32,650 nt of DNA from a virus. Under the pieces are notes generated by a model. The model did no database searches, had not been told where the DNA came from, and worked only from the letters and a program-made list of their open reading frames with translations. This document shows positions 1 to 11,592 of this stretch, piece after piece; positions within the stretch are counted from its first letter, which is position 1, and each line of letters opens with the position of its first letter. The stretch spans positions 1-32,650 of IMG/VR virus record IMGVR_UViG_3300023202_000131. One strand, written 5' to 3'. Made by a program: the position numbers and the translations under genes.

Positions 1-26
1 CGAAAAGACTGGCCGACTCGCGAGGC

Positions 27-53
27 TTGACCCTAGGGGCCTGCATGTTAAAG
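27..53 (+). promoter_or_regulatory. possible tRNA promoter
   Basis: A TTGACC hexamer at 27-32 resembles a -35 box. An AT-richer stretch (ATGTTAAAG, 45-53) follows at roughly -10 distance, and then a GC-rich discriminator typical of stable-RNA promoters. It lies about 20 bases upstream of the tRNA-Lys half gene. The -10 match is poor, so this rests mainly on position. Confidence 0.3.
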
Positions 54-71
54 AGCCCCGGGCCTTACGTC

Positions 72-113
72 GGGCTGTTAGCTCAGTTGGTAGAGCAGCG
101 GACTTTTAATCCG
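72..113 (+). tRNA. 5' half of a tRNA-Lys(UUU) gene at the prophage junction
   Basis: The sequence follows a standard tRNA from the acceptor strand GGGCTGT (72-78) through the D arm (GCTC/GAGC around AGTTGGTA) to the anticodon stem and loop. The loop is C-TT-TT-AA (103-109), which places anticodon TTT at 105-107. The 3' side of the anticodon stem starts correctly (TCCG, 110-113) but the next base fails to pair with G98. No variable loop, T arm or matching 3' acceptor strand follows. The gene is therefore cut just past the anticodon loop, a common crossover point for tyrosine integrases. I infer that the left side is host DNA and that element DNA begins near 110-114. A functional copy would have to be rebuilt at the other junction, outside the window. 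Confidence 0.7.
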
Positions 114-359
114 ACGTACCCCTTCCCGCGCCTTGGTTTTCTCAGTGATTCCGCGACGGGCTGCGTCAGCAAGCGCCTCGAAGCGTCTGCAAACGCCCCT
201 TTTGAGACACGGAATGGGACACGGGCCTAGCCCGCCTCACTCAGCTATTCAAAGTCGTCCGGCACCCGCGTAGCAGGCGCTGCGATGGCAAGAACGACGT
301 CCTCTAGGCGACGCGCGACCGCACGAGCGCTTGGGGTGTTTCATAGGCTTCCTTCACGC
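114..359. other. junction-proximal non-coding DNA, candidate attachment-site arm region
   Basis: This stretch of about 250 bases lies between the truncated tRNA and the late-operon terminator, and I see no convincing gene in it. It holds three consecutive decamers beginning AAGCG/AAACG (171-200), a repeated GACACGG (206-212 and 218-224) and a small inverted repeat CGGGC-CTA-GCCCG (222-234). Short repeats beside a crossover site can be integrase arm sites, but no integrase is present to compare with and this reading is speculative. Confidence 0.35.
171..200. repeat. three tandem imperfect decamers
   Basis: AAGCGCCTCG, AAGCGTCTGC and AAACGCCCCT follow one another in exact 10-base register, sharing the pattern AA(G/A)CG(C/T)C. 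One helical turn of spacing would suit a protein-binding array. The array is short and could be chance in GC-rich DNA. Confidence 0.35.
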
Positions 360-402
360 AAAAAAAGCCCCCGCCCTCTGGCAGAACACAGAGAGCGGGG
401 GC
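360..402 (-). terminator. strong intrinsic terminator of the late operon
   Basis: Read on the minus strand, GCCCCCGCTCT (402-392) pairs with AGAGGGCGGGGGC (379-367) across a loop of about a dozen bases, and a run of seven T (366-360) follows directly. The stem has about ten pairs, nearly all G-C. It sits about 40 bases beyond the stop of the last minus-strand gene, as expected for the end of the late transcript. Confidence 0.93.
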
Positions 403-444
403 ACCCGTTGGAGGAGTGTCGAGGAGGGCCCCCGACGACATTGG

Positions 445-639
445 TTAGGAAGGGCTGAGCTTCCAGTCGATTCGGCGCATCACTTCTTCGAATTCGTCTT
501 CGCTCACGCCGTGCGCCTTTCGCCAGCCCTCGATCCAATGCAGGAGCGCGTCGGGGTCCCGAAGCAAGCGCATGAGCTCGGGCCAGGTTTTTTCGAGGTC
601 GCGGTGAAACTCGGCGGCGAGGTCGTTCGGTGTGCTCAT
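445..639 (-). CDS. small acidic protein of unknown function, last gene of the late operon
   Basis: A 64-aa protein that I do not recognise. It is mostly predicted helix, with acidic residues and several Trp (EKTWPEL, LLHWIEGWRKAHG, EEVMRRIDWKL). It has no membrane segment or signal peptide. Its ATG overlaps the stop of the preceding gene in an ATGA junction, so it is probably translated by coupling. Its place after the endolysin and before the terminator is where phages often keep a lysis accessory or an unrelated late passenger gene. Codon use and the coupling make it a likely real gene, but no function can be assigned. Confidence 0.7.
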   Translation of the reverse strand: MSTPNDLAAEFHRDLEKTWPELMRLLRDPDALLHWIEGWRKAHGVSEDEFEEVMRRIDWKLSPS

Positions 640-854
640 GGCTCATCGTCCTTCGGCGGCGGGCGTGACGTGCGGCGCAGTCCATAGGGCTCGTAGCGCC
701 ATTCCTCGAGGATGAAGCGCACCTCGCGCACCGTTTTCACAAGCCCTCGCGCAGTCAACCGGGTCGCCGCACGGGCTTGGTGGGACCGGGACAGCTCAGA
801 GAGGGAAGTTTCGAGGTCTTCGAGTTTTTGAAGGGCGCGGATGTAGTAGCTCAC
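636..854 (-). CDS. small basic helical protein of unknown function
   Basis: A 72-aa product starting at a GTG (MSYYIRALQKLEDL). The first 30 residues look like an amphipathic helix or short coiled coil, followed by a basic middle (TRLTARGLVKTVREVRF) and a Pro/Lys/Asp tail. It starts 11 bases after the amidase stop with a weak purine stretch (GAGAAG) upstream, and its own stop overlaps the next gene (ATGA). There is no membrane span. It could bind nucleic acid or be an endolysin accessory, but neither is shown by the sequence. Confidence 0.65.
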   Translation of the reverse strand: MSYYIRALQKLEDLETSLSELSRSHQARAATRLTARGLVKTVREVRFILEEWRYEPYGLRRTSRPPPKDDEP

Positions 855-865
855 GGGTGCGCTTC

Positions 866-1555
866 TCAGTACCCCGCACAGTCGAGCGCGTCAAAGAGCT
901 CGGTGCCGGGGTCGCTTTTCGGGCGGGACACGTGGAAGTGCCCAAGCACTCCCGAAAATGTGGCGAGCTCGGCCTTGGTGAGCTTGCGGCGGATGAGGCG
1001 TCTGTTTCCATTGCGGGGGATTCGGCGGCGGATGGCGGGGAGCACCGTCCGCAGCCCTTCGTCAAGCGCGAGGAAGGCTTTGAGCTGCCATGGCGTGAAC
1101 GCCGCAAATTGACGCAGCCGCCCGTTGAGCGTCGTCGTGTAGACGGGCCGGTCCCTTCCGGGGCGCGGAATGGCTTTCCCCGGCCGCCGGAAACCGTAGC
1201 AGGTGATTTCGGTGCCGACCGATCGCGGATTGACGTGACCCGCGTCAAAGGTATCGATTCGGGCGGGGTCCGCGAACTGCCAAACGACGCCCCACGAATC
1301 GATCAAGAACTCGACGCCAAGCCGTCGGCCCGTGAGCGTGCGGAACGTTTGCCGCGCCGTCCCTTCGCCCCCGGTGAAGTGGGCCACGTGAAGGTCGATT
1401 TTCTGCTTTTTGAAGCGGCGCCGCGCCCCCTTTCCTTCGATGAAGGTGAGGCCGTGGTCCTTCCAGGTGAGCACGGGAGCGGCGATTTCGATCCGCATGT
1501 CGGCCACGATGATGTCGCTCCCGTAGTGACCGGAGTCCGGGCAATAGTCTGTCAT
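866..1555 (-). CDS. endolysin, N-acetylmuramoyl-L-alanine amidase (amidase_2 type)
   Basis: A 229-aa cytoplasmic murein hydrolase expected to cut the bond between N-acetylmuramic acid and L-alanine at the end of infection. The zinc-site landmarks of T7-lysozyme/PGRP-type amidases appear in order: HVAHFTGG near residue 57, DAGHVNPRSVGTEI near residues 105-118, and GHFHVSRPKSDPG near residues 205-217, where the last His and the KSDPG signature complete the site. No signal peptide or cell-wall-binding domain is present, so release should depend on the holin. The start codon overlaps the stop of the upstream membrane gene (ATGA). The protein is somewhat longer than T7 lysozyme, with a basic Arg-rich stretch around residues 175-190. 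Confidence 0.92.
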   Translation of the reverse strand: MTDYCPDSGHYGSDIIVADMRIEIAAPVLTWKDHGLTFIEGKGARRRFKKQKIDLHVAHFTGGEGTARQTFRTLTGRRLGVEFLIDSWGVVWQFADPARIDTFDAGHVNPRSVGTEITCYGFRRPGKAIPRPGRDRPVYTTTLNGRLRQFAAFTPWQLKAFLALDEGLRTVLPAIRRRIPRNGNRRLIRRKLTKAELATFSGVLGHFHVSRPKSDPGTELFDALDCAGY

Positions 1556-1887
1556 CGTCGTCGCCGTAACTTCTGCGCGATGCCGTCGAGGTCTTTTTCG
1601 TGGCGGTTGAGCGTGGTGTCGATGAGCCGCATTCGCTCCGGGCTCACGTGCTGACAGTCGCGCTTGACGCGCTCCACTTCGGCCTGGATCTGCTTCCGTT
1701 CCGCTTCGCCCAAGTCAATCCGGTTTTTCTGGTCGAGCAGTACCCATACGAGAATGGCCACCAAGGCCGGACCTAGAAGAGCCGCGGTCCACCATACTCC
1801 TCTGCCAAAGTCCGCGGCGCTTCGGAACCGGTCGATGCCCGCGCGGATGGACGGGCTGACGCGGATGCTACGTTTGCTTTCCGCCAC
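1552..1887 (-). CDS. membrane protein with one span and a coiled coil, candidate inner-membrane spanin or holin partner
   Basis: A 111-aa product starting at GTG. About 30 residues precede a single hydrophobic segment (about 31-52: VWWTAALLGPALVAILVWVLL), which is followed by a charged, heptad-like helix (about 55-105) ending in a run of Arg. One span plus a periplasmic coiled coil is the layout of Rz-type inner-membrane spanins, although XhlA-like holin accessories look similar. It overlaps the upstream gene by 20 bases and the endolysin start by four, placing it in the lysis cassette. No lipobox-bearing Rz1 partner is seen in another frame. The lysis role is inferred from topology and position. 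Confidence 0.72.
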   Translation of the reverse strand: MAESKRSIRVSPSIRAGIDRFRSAADFGRGVWWTAALLGPALVAILVWVLLDQKNRIDLGEAERKQIQAEVERVKRDCQHVSPERMRLIDTTLNRHEKDLDGIAQKLRRRR

Positions 1888-2128
1888 GGCCGTACAGTGC
1901 TTGCAAGAGAAGTCGGTTTTCTGCTTCCACGGCCGCCAGTTGTTCCGCCAAGCGCGCAGCCCGGCGTTCGAGGAATTCGATTCGGTTTCGGGTTCGGTCC
2001 CGGGTGTCGTTCCGTCCTAGGACATACATGCGCTCGAGGTGGGTGCGGATGAAGCGCGTGAGCTCGTCCGGCACCGGGTAGCCGAGACGGTCGCGGATGG
2101 CGTCTTCCGAATCGTCGATGACGGTCAT
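1868..2128 (-). CDS. small coiled-coil protein of unknown function
   Basis: An 86-aa soluble protein. Residues 1-45 are acidic then mixed (DDSEDAIRDRLGYPVPDELTRFIRTHLERMY). Residues 48-78 are a strong heptad helix (RIEFLERRAARLAEQLAAVEAENRLLLQAL) that probably dimerises. It starts directly after the stop of the diguanylate cyclase gene (TGA-ATG), so the two are very likely co-translated. It could be a partner of the cyclase or an independent lysis-region gene. I do not recognise a family. Confidence 0.7.
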   Translation of the reverse strand: MTVIDDSEDAIRDRLGYPVPDELTRFIRTHLERMYVLGRNDTRDRTRNRIEFLERRAARLAEQLAAVEAENRLLLQALYGRGGKQT

Positions 2129-3136
2129 TCACTTTGGGTTCCCGGGGAAGTCGGATTCCAGCGGCGTGAGGCTTTCGGGCGGCGGCACGATGCTCGAGCT
2201 GTGCAGGAACTTGTTTTTGGTGGCGGAGTTTTTGGCCTTGATCAAGATGGGCGACGCCTTCCCGATAATCCCATGCAAGGTCGAAGCTTGGCTTGAGGAC
2301 CCGGATCCGAGTTGCACGATGGCGCCCGAGCAGGTCACCTCGGCGGTGCTTTCGTCGCCCGCGCTGTTGAGGTAGATGGGGCGGCTCATTCCGTCGCGCA
2401 GGCGCTGCATGATGGTGGTCGCTTCTCGCGCGTCCCGGCATGAGACGATGGCGATAAACTCGTCGCCCCCGACGCGTCCGCAGTCGTCGGTCAACCGGAG
2501 TCGTCGCCGCATCCGCTCGGCCGTCTTTCGGAGCACAAGGTCGCCCGCGGCTTGGCCCCATCGCGAATTCACCTCTTTGAAGTCGTCGAGGTCGATCAGC
2601 GCGGCGTAGACTTGGAGGCCGAGGCGGTCGCTGAGCGCGATGGCTTTGGGGATGGCCTCTTCGACGCCTCTGCGGTTCAGCAGGCCCGTGAGCGCGTCGA
2701 GTCGGGTCAGCGCCTCAAGCTTCTTTCGCTCCTCGATTTCGTCGGTCTTGTCGATCTGGAGGCCGAACGCGCGATCGTCGGCGACCTTGCCCCTCGATTC
2801 GACCGCGACCCAGTGCCCGTCACGGTGCCGGTAGCGCATGACGGCAAGGTAGATGCCTTTGGGGTCTGCCTTGGCCCGCTCGAGGCTTGCGTCGACGTTT
2901 TTTGAGTCGTCCGGATGCGCGATCGAGCGCCAGAACTTGGGCCCTTGCGGAATCTCGTCCGCCGAGAATCCAAACGTTTCGCAGAACTTTGGGCTTGCCC
3001 AGCTCAGCCCCTCGTTCGACAGGTCCCATATCCAGCATCCGTCAAACGCGGACTCGTAGAGCTCGAACGCATCCCATCCGATTAGTTCGATGAGCTCCTG
3101 CCTCAGTCTGTCGCTGGCTGCTTCGATCTGGTTCAT
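2129..3136 (-). CDS. PAS-GGDEF diguanylate cyclase encoded in the phage lysis operon
   Basis: A 335-aa soluble protein predicted to make cyclic di-GMP from two GTP. Residues about 28-135 form a PAS sensor domain (WIWDLS, FGFSADEI, HPDDSKN, RYRHRDGHWV). A short helical linker (EIEERKKLEALTRL) leads to the GGDEF domain, which opens with DALTGLLNRRG (147-157). The metal and guanine site is present (IDLDDFKEVN 181-190 with N190, and D199), the signature GGDEF is at 223-227, and an RLTD inhibitory site at 214-217 has the same spacing as in PleD. The last part, where ADxALYxAK is usual, is altered (GKASPILIKAKNSATKNKF), so activity needs testing. There is no membrane segment. Stop-start contacts on both sides (TAG-ATG upstream, TGA-ATG downstream) tie it into the operon. 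Catalytic activity and any effect on host motility or biofilm are inference. Confidence 0.93.
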   Translation of the reverse strand: MNQIEAASDRLRQELIELIGWDAFELYESAFDGCWIWDLSNEGLSWASPKFCETFGFSADEIPQGPKFWRSIAHPDDSKNVDASLERAKADPKGIYLAVMRYRHRDGHWVAVESRGKVADDRAFGLQIDKTDEIEERKKLEALTRLDALTGLLNRRGVEEAIPKAIALSDRLGLQVYAALIDLDDFKEVNSRWGQAAGDLVLRKTAERMRRRLRLTDDCGRVGGDEFIAIVSCRDAREATTIMQRLRDGMSRPIYLNSAGDESTAEVTCSGAIVQLGSGSSSQASTLHGIIGKASPILIKAKNSATKNKFLHSSSIVPPPESLTPLESDFPGNPK

Positions 3137-3601
3137 CTACACGTGCTCGCGGAACCATCGCCGCATTCGCTTCTTGGGCCACGTCCACGCGTATTCGCGC
3201 CAGAGCGCGTTGACGCAGCGCTCGATTTCCCGGCGGGGGTCGTAGGCCGCTCGGATGTTGACGAGCATCGCCTCACGCTCCCATCGCCAGCGGAACCAGG
3301 CGAGTCCGATCGGAAGCGGGAGCATCAGGTAGGTGAGCCAGAAGAGCACGTTCCACTTGCGCCATTGCGTCACGTGGACGCATTCATGCCGGATAAGAGT
3401 GACGTATCGGTACGGGTCGGCGACGGTCGTTGGGTACCAGATGGTGCGCCCGAGAGTGGTCCAGTAGTGAGTGACGAATCGCTTGTTGCCGACGACGCGA
3501 AGCAGGTGCCCGATGGCGCGCATGAAGCGGGAGCCGTCTTTGGGGCGAAGGCGCGCACCGTGCTCAGCGAGAATGGATTCGACGTCGAGAGAAGACGTCA
3601 C
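3137..3601 (-). CDS. HExxH metallopeptidase-like protein with a hydrophobic segment
   Basis: A 154-aa protein starting at GTG within a GTGA overlap with the upstream gene. It carries a zincin motif RHECVHVTQW with H72, E73 and H76. A hydrophobic stretch follows (about 84-105, VLFWLTYLMLPLPIGLAWF), then WEREAM, where a Glu near 108-110 could be the third zinc ligand. The spacing HExxH, aromatic/Tyr segment, E-x-EA resembles small phage and bacterial gluzincin-like proteins. The C-terminus is basic and Trp-rich. It may be a membrane-attached peptidase acting at lysis or on an envelope protein. Substrate and activity are unknown. Confidence 0.78.
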   Translation of the reverse strand: MTSSLDVESILAEHGARLRPKDGSRFMRAIGHLLRVVGNKRFVTHYWTTLGRTIWYPTTVADPYRYVTLIRHECVHVTQWRKWNVLFWLTYLMLPLPIGLAWFRWRWEREAMLVNIRAAYDPRREIERCVNALWREYAWTWPKKRMRRWFREHV

Positions 3602-4233
3602 AGAAACTGCCCCGCGGCGTATCCGGCTCCGCCGGCGGCGACGGCGGTCAAGACGATGGCGCCCACGCGTTTGAAGCGCTCGCGGCGGACCTGTCTCTTT
3701 AGCTCGTTCGACCGCTTCCGCTCCATGCTTGCCGCTTTCTTAAACAAGTCCGCTTGCTCGTCTCGATGGTGGAGGGCGACGCGAAGGGCGTCGATGGTCT
3801 GGTCGGACAGCTCGATGAGGTCCTGTTGACGGGCGATGGTGTCGTCCGCGGTGACGATGGTCTGTTCAAGGCTCCGGACGTAGGCGCGCATTTCGTCAAG
3901 CTCTTCTTCGGCTTCTTCGAAGGTCTGGGCCCGCGGCATTTGCGCGATGCGGCGTCGCTGCTTTTCGTTTTGGACGACGGCCGCGTCAAACTTCGCCTGG
4001 AGCACACGCACTTCTTCGGCCTTGACTTTGCGCTTGGCCTCGTTCGTGAAGGCGAGCGCGGCGGCTTCGTCTGCGCGTTTCGATTCGGCCATGGCCCGTT
4101 CTTTCACCAGCTCGATTTCAGCGCGGAGCATGCGGTCCTGGCGCCGGACCTGTGCGAGCTCGAAGAGCAGCCAGCCGATGGCGGCGGCGACCACGAAGGC
4201 CCCGACGACACCGAGCCAGCCTTTCCACGTCAT
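3598..4233 (-). CDS. two-ended membrane protein with a long coiled coil, candidate spanin
   Basis: A 211-aa product, taking the ATG at 4233 because it overlaps the stop of the holin-like gene (ATGA). An upstream in-frame start at 4374 would lie wholly inside that gene. Residues 6-26 are a membrane span (WLGVVGAFVVAAAIGWLLFEL). Residues 30-175 are an almost continuous charged helix with heptads. The C-terminus (about 188-211, VGAIVLTAVAAGGAGYAAGQFL) is a second Gly/Ala-rich hydrophobic segment. A long coiled coil with membrane segments at both ends could bridge inner and outer membranes like a spanin, although known u-spanins use a lipid anchor at the N-terminus. Function is inferred from topology and position. 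Confidence 0.75.
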   Translation of the reverse strand: MTWKGWLGVVGAFVVAAAIGWLLFELAQVRRQDRMLRAEIELVKERAMAESKRADEAAALAFTNEAKRKVKAEEVRVLQAKFDAAVVQNEKQRRRIAQMPRAQTFEEAEEELDEMRAYVRSLEQTIVTADDTIARQQDLIELSDQTIDALRVALHHRDEQADLFKKAASMERKRSNELKRQVRRERFKRVGAIVLTAVAAGGAGYAAGQFL

Positions 4234-4499
4234 GGCTTCGGAGGAGGTGACGACTTGACGGTTTTGACGACCACTTCCCCGGTCGGGCCTTGTCCGGGCC
4301 ACTTGAGGGTGCCGGGCTCGTCCGCACGGCGAAGGATGCCGAGACGGTAGAGCACGCCCTGAACGCTGGCCCACTTGGCGTCATCGGCCTTCGATGGCGT
4401 GGCGCCGATGACGAGTGACACGATGACGGACACGGCCGCGGCGATTTCCAAGATGAGCGTAAGTCCACCCCCGGTGAACCACTCGATGACCTTTTCCAT
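4230..4499 (-). CDS. small single-span membrane protein, probable holin
   Basis: An 89-aa protein starting at the ATG at 4499 (MEKVIEW), which has a good ribosome site (AAGGGGGAAGTA) in front and shares a base with the stop of the preceding micro-ORF (TAATG). A longer start at 4556 is less likely because it overlaps that micro-ORF. One hydrophobic segment (about 10-32, GGLTLILEIAAAVSVIVSLVIGA) is followed by TPSKADDAKWASV, the TP.KADD pattern seen after the last span of many small phage holins, then a cytoplasmic Pro/Lys tail. It lies first among the lysis genes. Holins of this kind open the inner membrane to release endolysin. Confidence 0.75.
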   Translation of the reverse strand: MEKVIEWFTGGGLTLILEIAAAVSVIVSLVIGATPSKADDAKWASVQGVLYRLGILRRADEPGTLKWPGQGPTGEVVVKTVKSSPPPKP

Positions 4500-4579
4500 T
4501 ACTTCCCCCTTTGTCGATACAGTCGCCATCGCCGAATGATTGGCAAGTGTTCCCACCAGGCGTGCGGCGTCATGTTCAT
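4499..4579 (-). CDS. 26-aa micro-ORF bridging the fibre and lysis modules
   Basis: ATG at 4579 sits in an ATGA overlap with the stop of the upstream 373-aa protein gene. The TAA at 4501-4499 shares one base with the ATG of the holin-like gene. The peptide is rich in Trp, Arg and His (MNMTPHAWWEHLP then IIRRWRLYRQRGK), amphipathic and strongly basic at the end. Coupling at both ends is hard to get by chance and argues that it is translated, perhaps to carry ribosomes into the holin gene or as a small chaperone-like or membrane-active peptide. I do not recognise it. Confidence 0.65.
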   Translation of the reverse strand: MNMTPHAWWEHLPIIRRWRLYRQRGK

Positions 4580-5697
4580 GCTCTTACCAAAAACCTTCGT
4601 CCGGGCGCCGGTCCTGCGCTTTGGGTGAAATCGATCACTTGCCAGTCAAACGTCCGGTCGATGAAGTTTGAGGCATCCTCGTAGTGGTCGAGCTGGAGCG
4701 TGGTCGCGTCCGTAATTTCGAGCGTTGCTCCCGCGCAGGCAGGCCAGTTGGAATTAATGGTGCCGTCGCAACGGCCCGATGCCACCGCTCCGGGGCTGCC
4801 TGTGTGCATCGCGATGGATGCCGACGTATTGACCGATGAGATCGCGATGTCCTCTGGCAACGTGGTCACGCTGCCCACGTTTGTGAGAATCGAGCCCCGT
4901 TGCACCGTTTCACCGTTCGCGAACTTGACCACCCACCCGCTCCAGTCGATCGCGTTCGAGTCGGCCAAATCGCGAGTGACTGTGACCGTGGTTGAGTCGG
5001 TAAGGTCAACGCCCACGATGGCAGCGCCAGGGTCAGCGGCGTCCGTCGCCGGGTGCGCCGCTTTCCACGAGCCAAACACCGCCGTGTTGGCTGGCGTGAC
5101 GGCAGTCACGGTGCCGGTGTTGCTGGTCACCGCCGCGCCAAGCTGAACGTCTACGGCTTCCGTTGTGAAGCCCCCGTTGATGGACTCGATCACGTAGTAG
5201 TTGCCGTCCATCGTGCCCTGTGGCGTGCCCGTGCGGTCGAGCGTGAGCTCGTCCACGTCGGTGAGGCGCGCCCGCAGTAAATGGTTTCCCGCGCCTTCCG
5301 TCCCGGTGCTTTGCATCGAGTACGCCAATGCATAGGTGTTGGCCAGCACGACGTTTTGACCGAGTGAGGCTGCGAGCGAGCCCGATCCGGATGCGACCTG
5401 AAACGTGCCTTGTTGAACGCGAACCTCGGCAGGGTTGTATTCGACCACATACACGAGCACGGACATTGACGAGTCCGTGTTGTCGCGCTCGACCACCAGG
5501 TCGCCAGACGTAAACCGGACGTTGAGCGCGTAGTTGTCAACATCTTGGAAATTGCTAGCAATGTCGCCAATGACGCGCTTTGAGACATACGGGACGCAGT
5601 TGGCCGTCGTTGGGCTCCCCGCAATGGCGACCTGCTCAAAGCCATCCCCGTCTGCAAGCGAAACCGTAACCGGCGTTATGGATGTGATCAGGCTCAT
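4576..5697 (-). CDS. beta-rich probable virion surface protein of unknown function
   Basis: A 373-aa protein with no signal peptide, rich in Thr, Val, Ser and Gly and almost without Lys, with alternating strand-like segments (VTVSLADGDGFEQVAIAG, TVTAVTPANTAVFGSWKAAH, TTVTVTRDLADSNAIDW). Residues about 30-150 resemble a compact phage fibre or decoration fold (NYALNVRFTSGDLVVERDN). The rest looks like serial beta domains ending in a short basic tail. It starts right after the stop of the lipoprotein gene (TAG-ATG) and its end overlaps the micro-ORF. Position after the fibre genes suggests a tail-fibre tip or accessory surface protein. No specific family is recognised. Confidence 0.75.
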   Translation of the reverse strand: MSLITSITPVTVSLADGDGFEQVAIAGSPTTANCVPYVSKRVIGDIASNFQDVDNYALNVRFTSGDLVVERDNTDSSMSVLVYVVEYNPAEVRVQQGTFQVASGSGSLAASLGQNVVLANTYALAYSMQSTGTEGAGNHLLRARLTDVDELTLDRTGTPQGTMDGNYYVIESINGGFTTEAVDVQLGAAVTSNTGTVTAVTPANTAVFGSWKAAHPATDAADPGAAIVGVDLTDSTTVTVTRDLADSNAIDWSGWVVKFANGETVQRGSILTNVGSVTTLPEDIAISSVNTSASIAMHTGSPGAVASGRCDGTINSNWPACAGATLEITDATTLQLDHYEDASNFIDRTFDWQVIDFTQSAGPAPGRRFLVRA

Positions 5698-8600
5698 CTA
5701 AAAGCTCGCGCATGAAGGCTCTGGGTCTGATACGGGAGATCCGTCGCACTCCCACACGTTGTCGGAAAACTCTGCATAACTGCCTGAGGAAGCCCCGAAC
5801 CCATAAATCGGCGTGTAGAACTTGTTCCCGGTGGCCACAGCGTCAGGCAGGTTGTTGTTGAGGATGTAACCACCAGCGGCCCCAAGCCAGTTGTTGCTAA
5901 TTGTGGCCCCCGTCGAACCCTCCTCGATCAAAATGGTTTGGCTCCAATGGAAGTTGCCCGGCTGCGAAGGCGGCCAATAGAAGTTGTTTCCGTCAATGGT
6001 GCAATTGGTGCAGCCCCTCATCTGAACGCCATCGGTATGACTGCCAGGAGACCAGTTTGTTCCGGGGTTGTTCAGATAAGAATCCTCAAGCAGCGTATCA
6101 GCTCCGTTAAACTTTACGCTGTCACTTCCGCAGTCGTGAATGTGCAGCCGCGTGAACCGATTCCCTGTGCCCAGGTCATACAAGCAGGAGGACGAGCTTC
6201 CGGGCCCGATCTCGCCGTCCTCGAGCACAACATTGTTGGATCCAGACTTTACCCATACCGTGTAGGAAGGCCCGCCCGTGGCGATGAAATTTCTCACCGT
6301 GACGTTGGAGCTTTCGATCTTCAGGTAGTTGAAGGTATAGTTTTCGTAGACGCCGGGTTGATCGATTGTTTGGCTGCCAAACGGAGTGAGAATCCCTGGG
6401 TTTGTCGGGCCGGTGTTGGCCTCGGTCGGCTTTGTAGACGCAACACACTGGTTGGTGCCCTGGTCGCACGCCTCTCCCGCAACCAGGCAACTGCCGCAGT
6501 TGACCGTGCCGCCACATCCGTTGTCCGCGCTACCACACTCAAGCCCGGCGCACGGGCTTGGCGTTGGCGTGCAACACACGCCGTCGTTGCACGTATCCCC
6601 GTCTCCAGGGTCGCATAGGCCGCCAGGATCGCAGCTCAACACTTGGCCGCAGTTGTTGGCCCACGAGCCGCAATTCTTGTCCGGGCTGTAAAGGTCCGCG
6701 CAGAAATTCGCGTTGGGCGTGCAGCATGTAAAGCTGTCGGTGCAGACTTCGCCTCCGCCGCAACCGGGGCTCGACGTGCAGTCGAGCGTGCCGTTACAGC
6801 CATCGTCAGGAAAGCCGCAGTCAAAGCTCGCGCACGTAAGCGGAGCACAGGTTGGAGTCCACGACCCTTCGGTAAGATTGGCCTGTGCCAACGTGTCCCC
6901 GTTCGCCCAAAGGCTCACGAACTCCAAAGGAAAAGTCGCGCCGCTCCGGAGCTCAAAGTCGTTTGCGATTTGCGTGTTGAATGTTTCGTCGTAGTCCTCG
7001 ACGGTGGCGTCGTAAGTCCCGCCCGTGATGTCCACCGTAAACGTGACCTTGTACCAGGTGCCCACCTCCGCCGTGGGGCATGTGCCCCCCACGCAGCGGT
7101 AGGTTCCCGTAGCGTCGTCCCGCGCCTGAAGCTCAAACCCGCTTTCATCGTAAAGGCGTACCGCCGCCGCTTGGTTGACGAAGTCTTGGGCCGTCGAGCT
7201 CGAGAGCCCGACAAAGGCGTTGAGCAGTCCGTCTGTATCCAGGCTGGCGGCGCGGAACCACACAACCGCCGTGAGGTCGTCGGACGCTTCTTGCTCCGAC
7301 TGAGAAAACGTCCAACTCGACTGCGTTTGAAGCTCTGCCGCAATGGGCGAAGTACCCCCAGTGCCGCCAGTACCACTAGTGCCACCAGTGCCGCCAAAAC
7401 CGGACCAGGTTCCCGCGGACTCCTCGATGGCCCCAATATCCCACGACGCTCCAAGCGGTCGCGCATTTCCTCGGATGTCCCACGCAAAGCTGCCACGAGC
7501 CGCGCCGTTGTTTCGCTGAGGTCGGTCGATGAGCGAATCAAAGTCACTGATCGTAACGTCGGCCGGGAAGTCGCCAAGGCTCGTCGAATACGGAACGCTC
7601 TCGAAAAACGGATTTGCGATGCTGTATGCAGGCGTCGAAACCAGGTCGTTTACCTGGTCTGCCGGTGCGTATTGCGAATCGATCACTTCGCCCCAAAGGT
7701 TATCCGAAAACACTTGCTCCGTTGGGTTGTGTACGGTGCTGCTGCCGTGCGTGGTTTGAAGGTTGCTCGAAATATTGTTTGTGAAGTCGCTGTTCGTGAT
7801 GTTGCTGTGGACGAACATCGATCCATAGCCGCCACCACGCGCCCGGCCCCAGACGATATTGTTGTGGAACTGAAGATTGTCTGCGTCCCGCACGGAGACG
7901 ACAAACCCGCCTGTGTACGGCGTATAGAAGATGTTGTTGACGACCGTGACGTTGTTCGCGATGTTTCCCGACTGCGTGTAGTCCTGGATAAAGAACGCGG
8001 CACTGCTGTAAACGTTGTAAACAAGGTTGCCGAGGATGAGCGAGTCGTCCACGCCAAGGATGAGCTCGATGCCGTCCGAGTGGCCGTTGTAACAGGGGCC
8101 GGTGCTGTTGTCCGTCCCCTTGCCGTACAGACCGTGGATCTTGTTATGGGCAAAGATGACGTTATCCCCGACTTGCTGCTGGATACCGTCCTCGGCAACG
8201 TCGTGCATATCCACGCGGTCGATCACGAGATAGTTGGCGTTGACTGCCGCCACGAGGTTGCAGGTGCCTTCGGTGTGAATCCCGCCCGACTCGCCGTACC
8301 CGCCGTCAATTTCTAGGTTGCGCAGGACGACGCGATCGGTTTCGTCCACCGCAACCACGTCTTGCGGCGTTCCCGCGCCGAAGAACCCGCCATCTGCCGA
8401 GAACACGAGCCCCTGCTTTTCCTGGCCGTCAATCGTCCAGTAGTCGGTGTTGATGTCCACAGGACCAAAGATGGCCTTGCCCTGCCCGAGAATGGTCTGC
8501 CAGCCCGTCTCGGTCCCGTGGCTGTCCTCAGTCGCTTTGCGGATGACAATGTTCTGCGTTCCGGAGTTGGCCACGCTCCACGTTCGCGTGAACGAGTTGT

Positions 8601-11496
8601 CGTAGTCGCCCGACGCGACCCAATACGTCGTGTCACGCACCATTGGCGAGGGGAGCCCCGCCCTTGCGTTGTCCCAGTCGGTTCCGTTGCCCGCGCCTCG
8701 CGCCACCGCCGCGACGTACACGTCGTTCGACGGCGTGTCGCTGTAGCTGAAGCCTGTGCTGAGGCAGTAGCCGCTGGTGTACGGAACGCCTTCGCAGATG
8801 CACTCCGCGCCAATGGCCGCGTCAAGGGTGCAGGTCGTCGCCGGTCCTGACGGCCATTCGGAGGTGTCCACGGGCGACCACGGGCTGCCCCCGCCGGATG
8901 ACAAGATGATGTCGCGGAGCTGCTTGCGGTGCGTGTCCCAGTCGTCGGGGTCCGAGCTCCAGCTTTGCGGCTGGTTTCCGTAGCCGCCTGGGTTGTTCAT
9001 CTCCCACCATGCGAGGGGCACGGCGTTGGCTACGATCAAGTCGGTTGCAGCGGAGTTGATGGCGTCCGCCATCTTGACGTAGTGGAGGTCCTGAACGCCA
9101 CGCCGCCAATGCTTGTAGCGCAGCGAGACGATGGGGCCGTCGATGCCGTAGTTGTTCGATGCGGGGAAGTCCTGGTCGAAGTCGCGCCCGGGGTACATAA
9201 GCAGGCCGTCGCCGTTGCTTGTGATGGAGCCGCGCTGGCCCCATTGGTCGTCTTGGCAGTAGCCGCGATCGCACGTCCCGCCCCCGGTGCATGGGTCGCC
9301 GTCCACGCCTGACGTGTCGCAGGTCTGCCCCTGGGGGCACTGCATGTCCACGGAGCAGTCCGCCCCCGAGCCCGAGCAAACGCCCTCGCAGACATCCTTG
9401 ACACGGATGCCAATGTTCCACGCCGACTCGAATGGGTCGCGAACGCCTTCGCTCGAGGAGTCGCCGCGAGAATCGGAGTTGTTGTAGTCGCCGAAGCTCT
9501 GGGGGTCCTGCCAGTAGTTGACGGACCAGATCCAATACTTCTCGAGACCGAGCTTGTACGCCGCCCACATCGCCTCGCGGAGCGCTACGCCTTCGTCTTC
9601 GACGGCATGGCTCCCGATGAGCGGGCGCTGGCCGTTGTAGCCGTACATGCGGCCCGCCGGGAGAATGATGTCGCGGCCCTCTTGGAAGCTGCTGTCGCAC
9701 GTTCCGGCGCAATCGCCGTCCACCGTGCAATATGTTTCGCTCTGCGGGTCGATGCAGTTGCCGGTCTCCTGTCCAAACAGGCCCCAGCCTGGCTGGAAGA
9801 ACATGACCGGGGCCGCCTGAAGCGTGACGTTGGTCATGTCGTCGTAGTGCTGCGGCGGCTTGGTGATGAAGGTGTCGAGGCCAGAGCCGCCCGACGTCAT
9901 CCACGCGCCCCATTGGTCGTAAATCGAAAGGTTGCCCGTAGACGGCTCATCGATGAGATACAGGAACAGGTCCGCGTCCCAGTTGCCCGATGACGCCTCG
10001 CTCATCCACGCGCTGGCGTAGGCGTTGACAGCCTCGCTCGTGACGCCCGCGTCGCCCCCGGTGCAGTTGCCTGCCGCAGCGCACCAGCTCGTATACCACT
10101 CCGCGCCCCCCTGGGGTCCAATGGCGTGCGTGTGGACGCCCCGCATTTCCCCCGGCCCACGATAGCCCTGTGCGGACGTGAAGAGGTCGCCGTCGAGGCG
10201 GTCGCGTTGCCCGGACCTCATGTTGCCGGGAACCGTGTTGTCCGCCCCGATGAGGTCGATGCGGTGGCGGTGCGCGACCTTGAAATACCGATTGATGATC
10301 GTGTCCGCCGTCGCGGTGGGGTTGAAGAAATTGGCCTTGCCCTGGTGTTTCCACCGAACGTAGCTGTCCTGAATGAACGAAAACGCCGGGACGGGTCCGG
10401 GCGTGTCCGGCATCGTGCGGTCATGGACAACCACGCGAACCGGGATCGCAATCTGCGCCGCGCCGGGCTCGTCCACGCGAATGTTCCCGGTGTACGTGCC
10501 AGCGGCGAGCGAGCGCGGGATCCAGATGTCGGCCCAAATGAGCTGGCTGTTCCCGGCCTCAACGTTGAACGCGCCGTCGGCATCGCTGCAATCCCCATCG
10601 GCACACACGAGCGGCACGGCGATGTCGGGAAACTTTTTGTTGGCACCGGGGCGGTCGGCCCAGAGTTGGGTCCCTCCCGCGCTTTGCATGAGCGACGGGG
10701 CCGCTTGCTCGTTCACGAGGATGTCCCCGTAGTGGAACATCGAGATGCCCTCGATCTCGAGATACCGGACGTAGAACAGCTCGATGTCGGTCGTGGTCCA
10801 GTTGAACAGGTTGTTCCCGACGCGGGTTGGGTCGTGGAGAATGGCGCCGCCTGGTCCCGAGAGCGAGTCCATCGAGACGGTAACGCCGTTGACCGCCGTG
10901 GTTTCGGCTTCGAGCACGAGCGCGAACGACACTACCTCGTTCTGCATCCCGTCGAGGTCGATGGTCGGGATGGAGTCCTCGCTGTCGTACACCGCATTGA
11001 CTTGAGGGAGCCCCGGAGTCTCGTCTTGCAAGACGGTTGTCTCGCCCGACTGCGCCCAGATCGCGCTGATGTCGCCTGGAGCTCCACCAATCGTCAACAC
11101 CGTCCCGCCGTCCACGGCGGAAATGCACCCGTCGTCCACCCCATCGCTCCCGCACGCCGTCGAGGCGTCCTTGGCGTAGTGGTTGACCTCGTAATAGACG
11201 CCGGTCGCATCCACTGGAATCTGAAACGAGCAGTTGTCGGTCGCGCCTTCGGCAACGCAGCTCAGCGGTCGCGGGGTTTGCGTGGCGTCGCCGTTCCAAG
11301 TCGCATGGACAAACGAGCATCCGCGCACCGCGATGCCGTCCGCGTCCGTGGCCGTGATCGTGCAAGTGACGGTCCCGCCGGGGAGTGGGCTCGTGCTGCT
11401 GATCTGAAAATCGGTGATGGTCGGACCGCCCACGTCGGATGTCTCGTGACAGCCAACGGCAGCAAAGAACAGGGCGATTAGGGATAGGCGTTTCAT
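5698..11496 (-). CDS. giant multi-domain lipoprotein: GH123/DUF4091-like glycosidase with two beta-helix regions
   Basis: A 1932-aa product. I chose the ATG at 11496 because it gives a lipoprotein signal peptide (MKRLSLIALFFAAVGC, lipidated Cys16) with GAGG upstream; the open frame extends to 11556 without a signal. Domains in order: Ig-like region (about 25-140). GH123/DUF4091-like region (about 145-900) with the adjacent Asp-Glu pair D516/E517 in LYLIDEP, a Cys-rich insert (about 697-747), and GDGLLMYPG near 762 before SLRYKHWRRGVQDLHYV. Right-handed beta-helix (about 920-1360) ending DIGAIEE. Gly/Thr linker (about 1367-1383). LamG-like region (about 1385-1545). Cys-rich CGSADNGCGG-type repeats (about 1547-1683). 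Second beta-helix (about 1700-1910). GH123 enzymes cleave beta-N-acetylgalactosaminides, so it may trim surface glycans. The lipobox and many Cys point to the cell envelope, not the virion. The domain reading is by eye; the substrate is unproven. Confidence 0.85.
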   Translation of the reverse strand: MKRLSLIALFFAAVGCHETSDVGGPTITDFQISSTSPLPGGTVTCTITATDADGIAVRGCSFVHATWNGDATQTPRPLSCVAEGATDNCSFQIPVDATGVYYEVNHYAKDASTACGSDGVDDGCISAVDGGTVLTIGGAPGDISAIWAQSGETTVLQDETPGLPQVNAVYDSEDSIPTIDLDGMQNEVVSFALVLEAETTAVNGVTVSMDSLSGPGGAILHDPTRVGNNLFNWTTTDIELFYVRYLEIEGISMFHYGDILVNEQAAPSLMQSAGGTQLWADRPGANKKFPDIAVPLVCADGDCSDADGAFNVEAGNSQLIWADIWIPRSLAAGTYTGNIRVDEPGAAQIAIPVRVVVHDRTMPDTPGPVPAFSFIQDSYVRWKHQGKANFFNPTATADTIINRYFKVAHRHRIDLIGADNTVPGNMRSGQRDRLDGDLFTSAQGYRGPGEMRGVHTHAIGPQGGAEWYTSWCAAAGNCTGGDAGVTSEAVNAYASAWMSEASSGNWDADLFLYLIDEPSTGNLSIYDQWGAWMTSGGSGLDTFITKPPQHYDDMTNVTLQAAPVMFFQPGWGLFGQETGNCIDPQSETYCTVDGDCAGTCDSSFQEGRDIILPAGRMYGYNGQRPLIGSHAVEDEGVALREAMWAAYKLGLEKYWIWSVNYWQDPQSFGDYNNSDSRGDSSSEGVRDPFESAWNIGIRVKDVCEGVCSGSGADCSVDMQCPQGQTCDTSGVDGDPCTGGGTCDRGYCQDDQWGQRGSITSNGDGLLMYPGRDFDQDFPASNNYGIDGPIVSLRYKHWRRGVQDLHYVKMADAINSAATDLIVANAVPLAWWEMNNPGGYGNQPQSWSSDPDDWDTHRKQLRDIILSSGGGSPWSPVDTSEWPSGPATTCTLDAAIGAECICEGVPYTSGYCLSTGFSYSDTPSNDVYVAAVARGAGNGTDWDNARAGLPSPMVRDTTYWVASGDYDNSFTRTWSVANSGTQNIVIRKATEDSHGTETGWQTILGQGKAIFGPVDINTDYWTIDGQEKQGLVFSADGGFFGAGTPQDVVAVDETDRVVLRNLEIDGGYGESGGIHTEGTCNLVAAVNANYLVIDRVDMHDVAEDGIQQQVGDNVIFAHNKIHGLYGKGTDNSTGPCYNGHSDGIELILGVDDSLILGNLVYNVYSSAAFFIQDYTQSGNIANNVTVVNNIFYTPYTGGFVVSVRDADNLQFHNNIVWGRARGGGYGSMFVHSNITNSDFTNNISSNLQTTHGSSTVHNPTEQVFSDNLWGEVIDSQYAPADQVNDLVSTPAYSIANPFFESVPYSTSLGDFPADVTISDFDSLIDRPQRNNGAARGSFAWDIRGNARPLGASWDIGAIEESAGTWSGFGGTGGTSGTGGTGGTSPIAAELQTQSSWTFSQSEQEASDDLTAVVWFRAASLDTDGLLNAFVGLSSSTAQDFVNQAAAVRLYDESGFELQARDDATGTYRCVGGTCPTAEVGTWYKVTFTVDITGGTYDATVEDYDETFNTQIANDFELRSGATFPLEFVSLWANGDTLAQANLTEGSWTPTCAPLTCASFDCGFPDDGCNGTLDCTSSPGCGGGEVCTDSFTCCTPNANFCADLYSPDKNCGSWANNCGQVLSCDPGGLCDPGDGDTCNDGVCCTPTPSPCAGLECGSADNGCGGTVNCGSCLVAGEACDQGTNQCVASTKPTEANTGPTNPGILTPFGSQTIDQPGVYENYTFNYLKIESSNVTVRNFIATGGPSYTVWVKSGSNNVVLEDGEIGPGSSSSCLYDLGTGNRFTRLHIHDCGSDSVKFNGADTLLEDSYLNNPGTNWSPGSHTDGVQMRGCTNCTIDGNNFYWPPSQPGNFHWSQTILIEEGSTGATISNNWLGAAGGYILNNNLPDAVATGNKFYTPIYGFGASSGSYAEFSDNVWECDGSPVSDPEPSCASF

Positions 11497-11592
11497 ACCG
11501 GCCTCAGTGCAAGAGATACGGTGGGGACGGTGTTGGGGAGGAATGATGCGTTTCACGAGATGATCATCCGGTTGTCGCGTTTGTCCAAGTTG

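What the first reader, a model, noticed from the sequence alone, without database searches (positions are those of the whole stretch)
2129..3136. Complete PAS-GGDEF diguanylate cyclase wired into a phage lysis operon
The sequence shows a PAS domain, an intact GGDEF motif, the conserved metal/guanine residues (D182, N190, D199) and an RLTD inhibitory site with the same spacing as in PleD. The gene touches both neighbours by stop-start codons, inside the late lysis segment. Cyclic-di-GMP synthases are very common in bacterial chromosomes but I know of few in phage late operons. A soluble sensor cyclase here could switch the host towards a sessile state, alter surface polysaccharide or exclude superinfecting phages, or act as a lysogeny-time signal if an internal promoter exists. 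The altered end of the GGDEF domain leaves some doubt about activity.
Basis: partly seen in the sequence, partly recalled or inferred. Interest (0 to 1): 0.88.

Follow-up and report, generated by a model that had tools for sequence, protein, structure and literature searches.

The report
Phage-carried signalling enzyme among lysis genes
This phage carries, in the same run of genes that makes its cell-wall-breaking enzyme, a complete sensor-linked enzyme predicted to make cyclic-di-GMP, the signal bacteria use to switch between swimming and sticking; phages with such enzymes are known but few, and this one is unusually complete and sits in an unusual place.

Summary
On the minus strand, 3136..2129 encodes a 335-aa soluble PAS-GGDEF protein with every catalytic residue tested, the PleD-spaced RxxD inhibitory site and a canonical 18-residue PAS-to-GGDEF linker. 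AlphaFold gives a confident model (pLDDT 88.7) in which the doubted C-terminal helix is intact, although five positions that are almost invariant in 69 relatives (not known to be catalytic) are changed. The gene abuts both neighbours (TAG|ATG, TGA|ATG) in a tightly coupled run that contains an Amidase_2 endolysin and ends at a strong terminator, so it is phage cargo, not host flank. The phage is not Mu-like: lambda-type head (GpA terminase, cap_E, HDPD), contractile tail. None of 50 related virus records holds a GGDEF gene, so it looks lineage-specific. Phage diguanylate cyclases are already known (Bacillus phages G and SP-15, Yuavirus/Vojvodinavirus, a Mu-like Cariaco virus); the novelty is a complete PAS-GGDEF inside a lysis segment. 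Most likely it makes c-di-GMP late in infection and acts through host effectors; activity and benefit are inferred, not shown. New member of a known kind; moderate interest.

The parts
2129..3136 (-). PAS-GGDEF diguanylate cyclase, 335 aa: N-terminal helices 2-30, PAS about 31-129, signalling helix 131-145, GGDEF 146-303, disordered tail
2456..2470 (-). codons of the GGDEF motif (res 223-227)
   Evidence: position computed
2486..2497 (-). codons of RLTD (res 214-217), inhibitory (I) site
   Evidence: position computed
1868..2128 (-). 86-aa protein of unknown function, starts on the base after the cyclase stop
   Evidence: no relative in 24 records (no positive control)
1552..1887 (-). 111-aa protein with one transmembrane stretch; weak Rz-like spanin match (E=0.03)
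866..1555 (-). Amidase_2 endolysin, 229 aa
   Evidence: E=1.4e-6, above Pfam cut-off
636..854 (-). 72-aa ORF, unknown
445..639 (-). 64-aa ORF, unknown
367..402 (-). intrinsic terminator (14-bp stem, then a run of T) closing the operon
3137..3601 (-). 154-aa hydrophobic-centre H-E-x-V-H-x-x-Q protein; its relatives are phage genes, one directly after an Amidase_2 endolysin
3598..4233 (-). 211-aa transmembrane plus coiled-coil protein (ATGA overlap with the gene upstream), spanin-like by anatomy only
4230..4556 (-). 108-aa protein with one transmembrane stretch, holin candidate by anatomy only
72..123 (+). 5' half of a tRNA-Lys-like sequence (TTT anticodon region), probable attachment-site remnant at the phage boundary

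Best explanation
A phage-borne diguanylate cyclase carried as an accessory (moron-type) gene. A soluble PAS-GGDEF protein dimerises through its PAS and signalling helix; when the PAS is in its active state it joins two GTP into c-di-GMP, with product feedback at the RxxD site. Because the gene is locked by stop-start coupling into the last, lysis-containing stretch of the head-tail-fibre-lysis gene run and has no recognisable sigma-70-type promoter of its own, it should be made together with the endolysin, late in infection, and act on the host only through host c-di-GMP receptors (polysaccharide synthases, motility, pili). Shown: domain content, residues, linker register, predicted fold, position, coupling, absence from the relatives searched. 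Inferred: enzyme activity, late expression, host output.
For: PAS_3 and GGDEF above Pfam and NCBIfam cut-offs. Catalytic and guanine-binding residues match 69/69 relatives at D182, K187, N190, D199, R221, G224, E226, K302. I-site RLTD present. PAS-to-DxLT spacing is 18 residues; 31 of the 34 measurable sequences, the query included, fall at 18, 25 or 32, i.e. whole heptads apart. Model pLDDT 88.7, C-terminal helix 287-303 formed. Foldseek: RbdA PAS-GGDEF-EAL E=3e-16; GGDEF domain of Dcsbis rmsd 1.9, TM-score 0.89 over the target. Exact abutments, coupled run and strong terminator. GC3 0.81, like the structural genes (0.73-0.83). Phage-type neighbours on both sides and about 2 kb to the tRNA-half boundary argue against host flank.
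Against: Five positions that are near-invariant in relatives but not known to be catalytic differ (S191, Q195, A272, S295, I299). The PAS ligand is unknown. No close homologue was found, so purifying selection cannot be tested. No c-di-GMP receptor (PilZ) or riboswitch found in the phage. A cyclase made only minutes before lysis has no obvious benefit. The host is unknown.
Confidence: 0.66

Rival explanations
1. Decayed or catalytically dead passenger: a host PAS-GGDEF gene picked up by the phage, folded but inactive, or acting only as a GTP- or c-di-GMP-binding protein.
For: Five near-invariant positions changed, including the D of the 'AD' motif (69/69 D in relatives); absent from all 50 related records searched.
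Against: Full-length open frame with coupled start and stop, all catalytic residues, I-site and linker register intact; confident fold; composition like the phage genes.
Confidence: 0.15
2. Lysogeny-stage gene: transcribed from an unrecognised promoter or by read-through in the prophage state, changing the biofilm or motility of lysogens.
For: Lysogens of Bordetella phage LK3 (Vojvodinavirus), which encodes a GGDEF protein, over-produce biofilm (PMC8471281; correlation only). The gene lies near a probable att site.
Against: No sigma-70-type promoter in 1-6000; no intergenic space upstream of the gene in which to hold one; no integrase seen, so temperateness is itself unproven.
Confidence: 0.12
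3. Lysis-timing module: the PAS senses a late-infection cue, and c-di-GMP or the protein itself controls the coupled membrane/holin-like neighbours.
For: Start-stop coupling to a membrane-type H-E-x-V-H protein, a one-TM protein and the endolysin.
Against: No c-di-GMP-binding domain or riboswitch found in the record; the H-E-x-V-H relatives occur without GGDEF and one lies near head genes, so the module is not conserved.
Confidence: 0.05
4. Host DNA wrongly placed in a viral contig.
For: Klebsiella phage ST16-OXA48phi5.4 shows this happens: its cyclase is a truncated host gene at the integration site (PMC7371120).
Against: The gene is flanked on both sides by coupled phage-type genes and is not at the record edge.
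Confidence: 0.02

Closest known systems
Bacterial PAS-GGDEF diguanylate cyclases and relatives (RbdA/PA0861, Dcsbis, PleD, WspR)
   Same: Catalytic residues, I-site, GGDEF fold, heptad-spaced signalling helix
   Different: Phage-encoded; only 21-28% identical to the 69 compared relatives over the alignment; S/Q/A/S/I at five near-invariant sites
Bacillus phage G gp350 and Bacillus phage SP-15 diguanylate cyclase
   Same: Phage-encoded GGDEF proteins; structural matches in BFVD
   Different: No PAS domain found in gp350 by Pfam; SP-15's protein is short (183 aa) and lies in a polysaccharide/teichoic-acid cluster; G's is among metabolic and unknown genes
Yuavirus / Vojvodinavirus GGDEF proteins (Epa38, PSA20, FP1, CN1)
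   Same: Phage-encoded GGDEF-family protein; lysogens of Vojvodinavirus LK3 make more biofilm (PMC8471281)
   Different: About 155 aa, no sensor domain, AGDEF motif, shortened C-terminal half, in a run of small genes near an exonuclease gene and, in the Yuavirus records, upstream of the terminase
Mu-like Cariaco Basin virus with a diguanylate cyclase (PMC7785012)
   Same: Cyclase proposed as a viral auxiliary gene
   Different: Cyclase at the contig edge beside cellular genes; phage Mu-like; authors report a promoter upstream of it
GGDEF-EAL proteins of two large virus contigs (L178, L180)
   Same: Phage-encoded GGDEF enzyme
   Different: About 660 aa with N-terminal hydrophobic segments plus an EAL domain, similar gene order in both contigs
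GGDEF domains in phage polyvalent proteins (PMC5512222)
   Same: GGDEF deployed by phages
   Different: One domain of giant multi-domain proteins (compare, L181), not a stand-alone sensor enzyme

Membership tests
GGDEF diguanylate cyclase | GG[D/E]EF motif in a scoring GGDEF domain | tested here: met
GGDEF diguanylate cyclase | Metal, triphosphate and guanine residues (PleD D327, K332, N335, D344, K442 equivalents) | tested here: met
   D182, K187, N190, D199, K302; PleD numbering from own knowledge
GGDEF diguanylate cyclase | Intact C-terminal AD-x-AMY-x-AK-x-x-G-[K/R] helix | tested here: inconclusive
   Helix modelled and K302 kept, but S295 for D and I299 for Y
GGDEF diguanylate cyclase | c-di-GMP synthesis in vitro | not testable with these tools
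   needs an enzyme assay
Feedback-inhibited DGC (I-site) | RxxD five residues ahead of GG[D/E]EF | tested here: met
   RLTD-DCGRV-GGDEF
PAS-coupled DGC | PAS domain and heptad-length linker to DxLT | tested here: met
Hypr GGDEF (cGAMP synthase) | Ser replacing the guanine-binding Asp (PleD D344) | tested here: not met
   D199 is Asp, as in all 69 relatives; Hypr rule from own knowledge
GGDEF-EAL bifunctional protein | EAL domain | tested here: not met
Known anti-phage defence protein (PADLOC) | match to a PADLOC model | tested here: not met
Mu-like phage | Mu-type head genes | tested here: not met
   Head genes are lambda-type
Mu-like phage | DDE transposase (MuA type) | not testable with these tools
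   the record is partial, so absence could not be judged
Phage lysis cassette | Endolysin with holin/spanin-like neighbours in one transcription unit | tested here: inconclusive
   Amidase_2 clear; TM and coiled-coil neighbours by anatomy, spanin match only E=0.03

The most novel reading that the evidence does not exclude
The PAS-GGDEF enzyme is a working part of the lysis programme: a PAS-sensed cue late in infection sets a c-di-GMP pulse that tunes lysis timing or rapidly alters the surface of the dying cell (receptor masking, matrix output), so that a phage uses the host's second messenger as a lysis-stage signal.
Probability: 0.1. Interest if true: 0.8.

Novelty: new member of a known kind. 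Interest (0 to 1): 0.43.

Why it matters
Phage-encoded c-di-GMP enzymes are occasionally reported, but I found no report of one shown to be active as a phage enzyme; the best published link, in Vojvodinavirus lysogens, is a correlation. A soluble, sensor-linked, apparently intact cyclase physically coupled to endolysin expression is a clean case for asking whether phages write to, and not only read, the host's lifestyle signal, and whether they do so during lysis. The two GGDEF-EAL proteins with similar neighbours in large phages suggest that such genes can be kept over time, not only passed through.

Tried and rejected
Mu-like assignment: rejected on lambda-type head genes. Host contamination: rejected on two-sided phage context. 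Klebsiella phage cyclases as precedents: phi5.4 rejected because its cyclase is a truncated host gene; ST846 phi9.1's ends exactly at the record end and is doubtful. Many phage-collection hits (faecal 'Bacteriophage sp.', Acinetobacter MD-2021a, Salmonella and Listeria contigs) were not used because they may be host sequence. Searches for relatives of the endolysin, the coiled-coil gene and the 86-aa gene found nothing (one search has no positive control). The H-E-x-V-H neighbour is not strictly a lysis protein: one relative follows an endolysin, another sits between scaffold-like and capsid-like genes; its fold search gave nothing significant. No c-di-GMP riboswitch or PilZ. The Photobacterium plasmid hit (about 30% identity) is an ordinary cellular locus. 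The CtrA lytic-deferment paper was read as a lead but gives no link to a phage cyclase.

Full report
What is there. The window is a whole IMG/VR record of 32,650 bases. The gene is on the minus strand, 3136..2129, 335 codons, ATG start. Pfam and NCBIfam both call PAS and GGDEF domains far above their cut-offs. The enzyme's key residues are in place: D182, K187, N190, D199, GGDEF 223-227, K302; the RxxD inhibitory site RLTD 214-217 stands five residues ahead of GGDEF, as in PleD (PleD positions from own knowledge). In an alignment with 69 relatives, nearly all from bacterial genomes, the residues known to matter for catalysis are shared; the alterations against the near-invariant consensus are S191 (D), Q195 (H), A272 (G), S295 (D) and I299 (Y).

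Signal coupling. The distance from the end-of-PAS D-x-T motif to the D of DxLT is 18 residues. Of the 34 sequences where a simple motif search could measure it, query included, 25 have 18, five have 25 and one has 32 (18 + 7n); three fall elsewhere (5, 24, 30). The query keeps the commonest register, which argues that the PAS-to-cyclase transmission path is unspoiled. The guanine-binding Asp is kept, so the predicted product is c-di-GMP and not cGAMP (Hypr rule from own knowledge).

Where it sits. Genes run on the minus strand in the order head protease, decoration, capsid, sheath, tape measure, baseplate, fibre, a 1,952-aa beta-helix protein with a weak glycoside-hydrolase-123-like match, a 373-aa protein, then a run of short coupled genes: 108-aa one-TM, 211-aa TM coiled-coil, 154-aa H-E-x-V-H protein, PAS-GGDEF, 86-aa, 111-aa one-TM, Amidase_2 endolysin, 72-aa and 64-aa. 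Spacings across this run lie between -20 and +19 nt; the cyclase abuts both neighbours with zero spacing. A strong terminator follows at 402-367, and no sigma-70-like promoter was found in 1-6000, though the host's promoters may differ. A tRNA-Lys-like 5' half lies at 72-123, a likely attachment-site remnant. The cyclase is thus about 2 kb inside the phage, among phage genes.

The phage. Terminase GpA and a lambda-family portal on an overlapping contig (L087, 99% identical over 4.3 kb), capsid E, HDPD and S49 protease give a lambda-type head; the sheath is about 50% identical to those of Shewanella phage SppYZU01 and similar 43-kb myoviruses. It is not Mu-like. No integrase was seen, but at least one end of the genome is missing.

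Distribution. Two scans of 2.9 million virus contigs, one with the protein and one with a 70-sequence alignment, returned only distant GGDEF loci (five in all); the method needs a short conserved peptide and so undercounts. None of 50 records with related sheath or neighbour genes holds a GGDEF domain (positive controls rang), though many are fragments. Bacterial matches are 21-28% identical over the alignment, with no close source. So the gene looks like a rare, lineage-specific acquisition with no visible recent donor.

Comparison with known cases. Phage diguanylate cyclases are a known if small class: Bacillus phage G gp350, Bacillus phage SP-15 within a polysaccharide/teichoic-acid cluster, short degenerate GGDEF proteins conserved in Yuavirus and Vojvodinavirus, where lysogens of LK3 make more biofilm (PMC8471281), a Mu-like Cariaco virus (PMC7785012), GGDEF domains in polyvalent proteins (PMC5512222) and, found here, GGDEF-EAL proteins with similar gene order in two large virus contigs. 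Some apparent cases are host DNA: the Klebsiella phi5.4 cyclase is a truncated host gene (PMC7371120). In BFVD only twenty viral models match at E <= 0.001, several of them named histidine kinases and so probably matching by PAS. I found no paper describing a cyclase in a phage lysis segment (library limited to open-licence papers).

How it most likely works. Shown: composition, residues, predicted fold, position and coupling. Inferred: a PAS-gated dimeric cyclase, made late with the endolysin, raises c-di-GMP in the infected cell, and host receptors do the rest. c-di-GMP acts directly on polysaccharide synthases (own knowledge), and a c-di-GMP-dependent glycan is a phage receptor in E. coli (PMC8669472), so surface change or exclusion of superinfecting phages is plausible but untested. 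A lysogeny role would need an unrecognised promoter or read-through; a lysis-timing role would need a c-di-GMP receptor that I could not find in the record.

Verdict. Interest 0.43.

Noticed in passing
L181 4683-15071 (IMGVR_UViG_3300017971_000108, 44 kb): A GGDEF domain with the main motifs (DTLTGL, DLDDFKELN, GGDEF) sits inside a giant protein (3463 aa in the locus, open frame 4218 aa in the record) that also carries Strawberry-notch helicase domains, i.e. a polyvalent-type protein.
   Followed up: partly
L178 7329-9302 and L180 7188-9167: Two large virus contigs carry a ~660-aa GGDEF-EAL protein with N-terminal hydrophobic segments at a similar place, followed in both by a thermonuclease-like gene.
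   Followed up: partly
L002 3-830: A GGDEF protein with N-terminal hydrophobic segments lies directly upstream of a terminase (with an intein-like insertion) and portal in a 31-kb virus contig; its C-terminal helix is also unusual.
   Followed up: no
window 3137-3601; L005, L006, L182: A small family of phage H-E-x-V-H-x-x-Q proteins with the signature LAWFRWRWEREA: beside an endolysin in L006, beside head genes in L182. Looks like a membrane metallopeptidase, but the fold search gave nothing significant.
   Followed up: partly
window 72-123 (+): 5' half of a tRNA-Lys-like sequence followed by unrelated sequence, just outside the operon terminator; probable att remnant.
   Followed up: partly
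window 5698-11556 (-): A 1,952-aa protein with beta-helix and weak GH123-like matches and Cys-rich stretches downstream of the tail fibre; possibly a host-surface adhesin or depolymerase.
   Followed up: no
G050 244356-244817 (+) (328-kb record of L178): A second, weak GGDEF match with an in-frame TGA in the same large phage.
   Followed up: no
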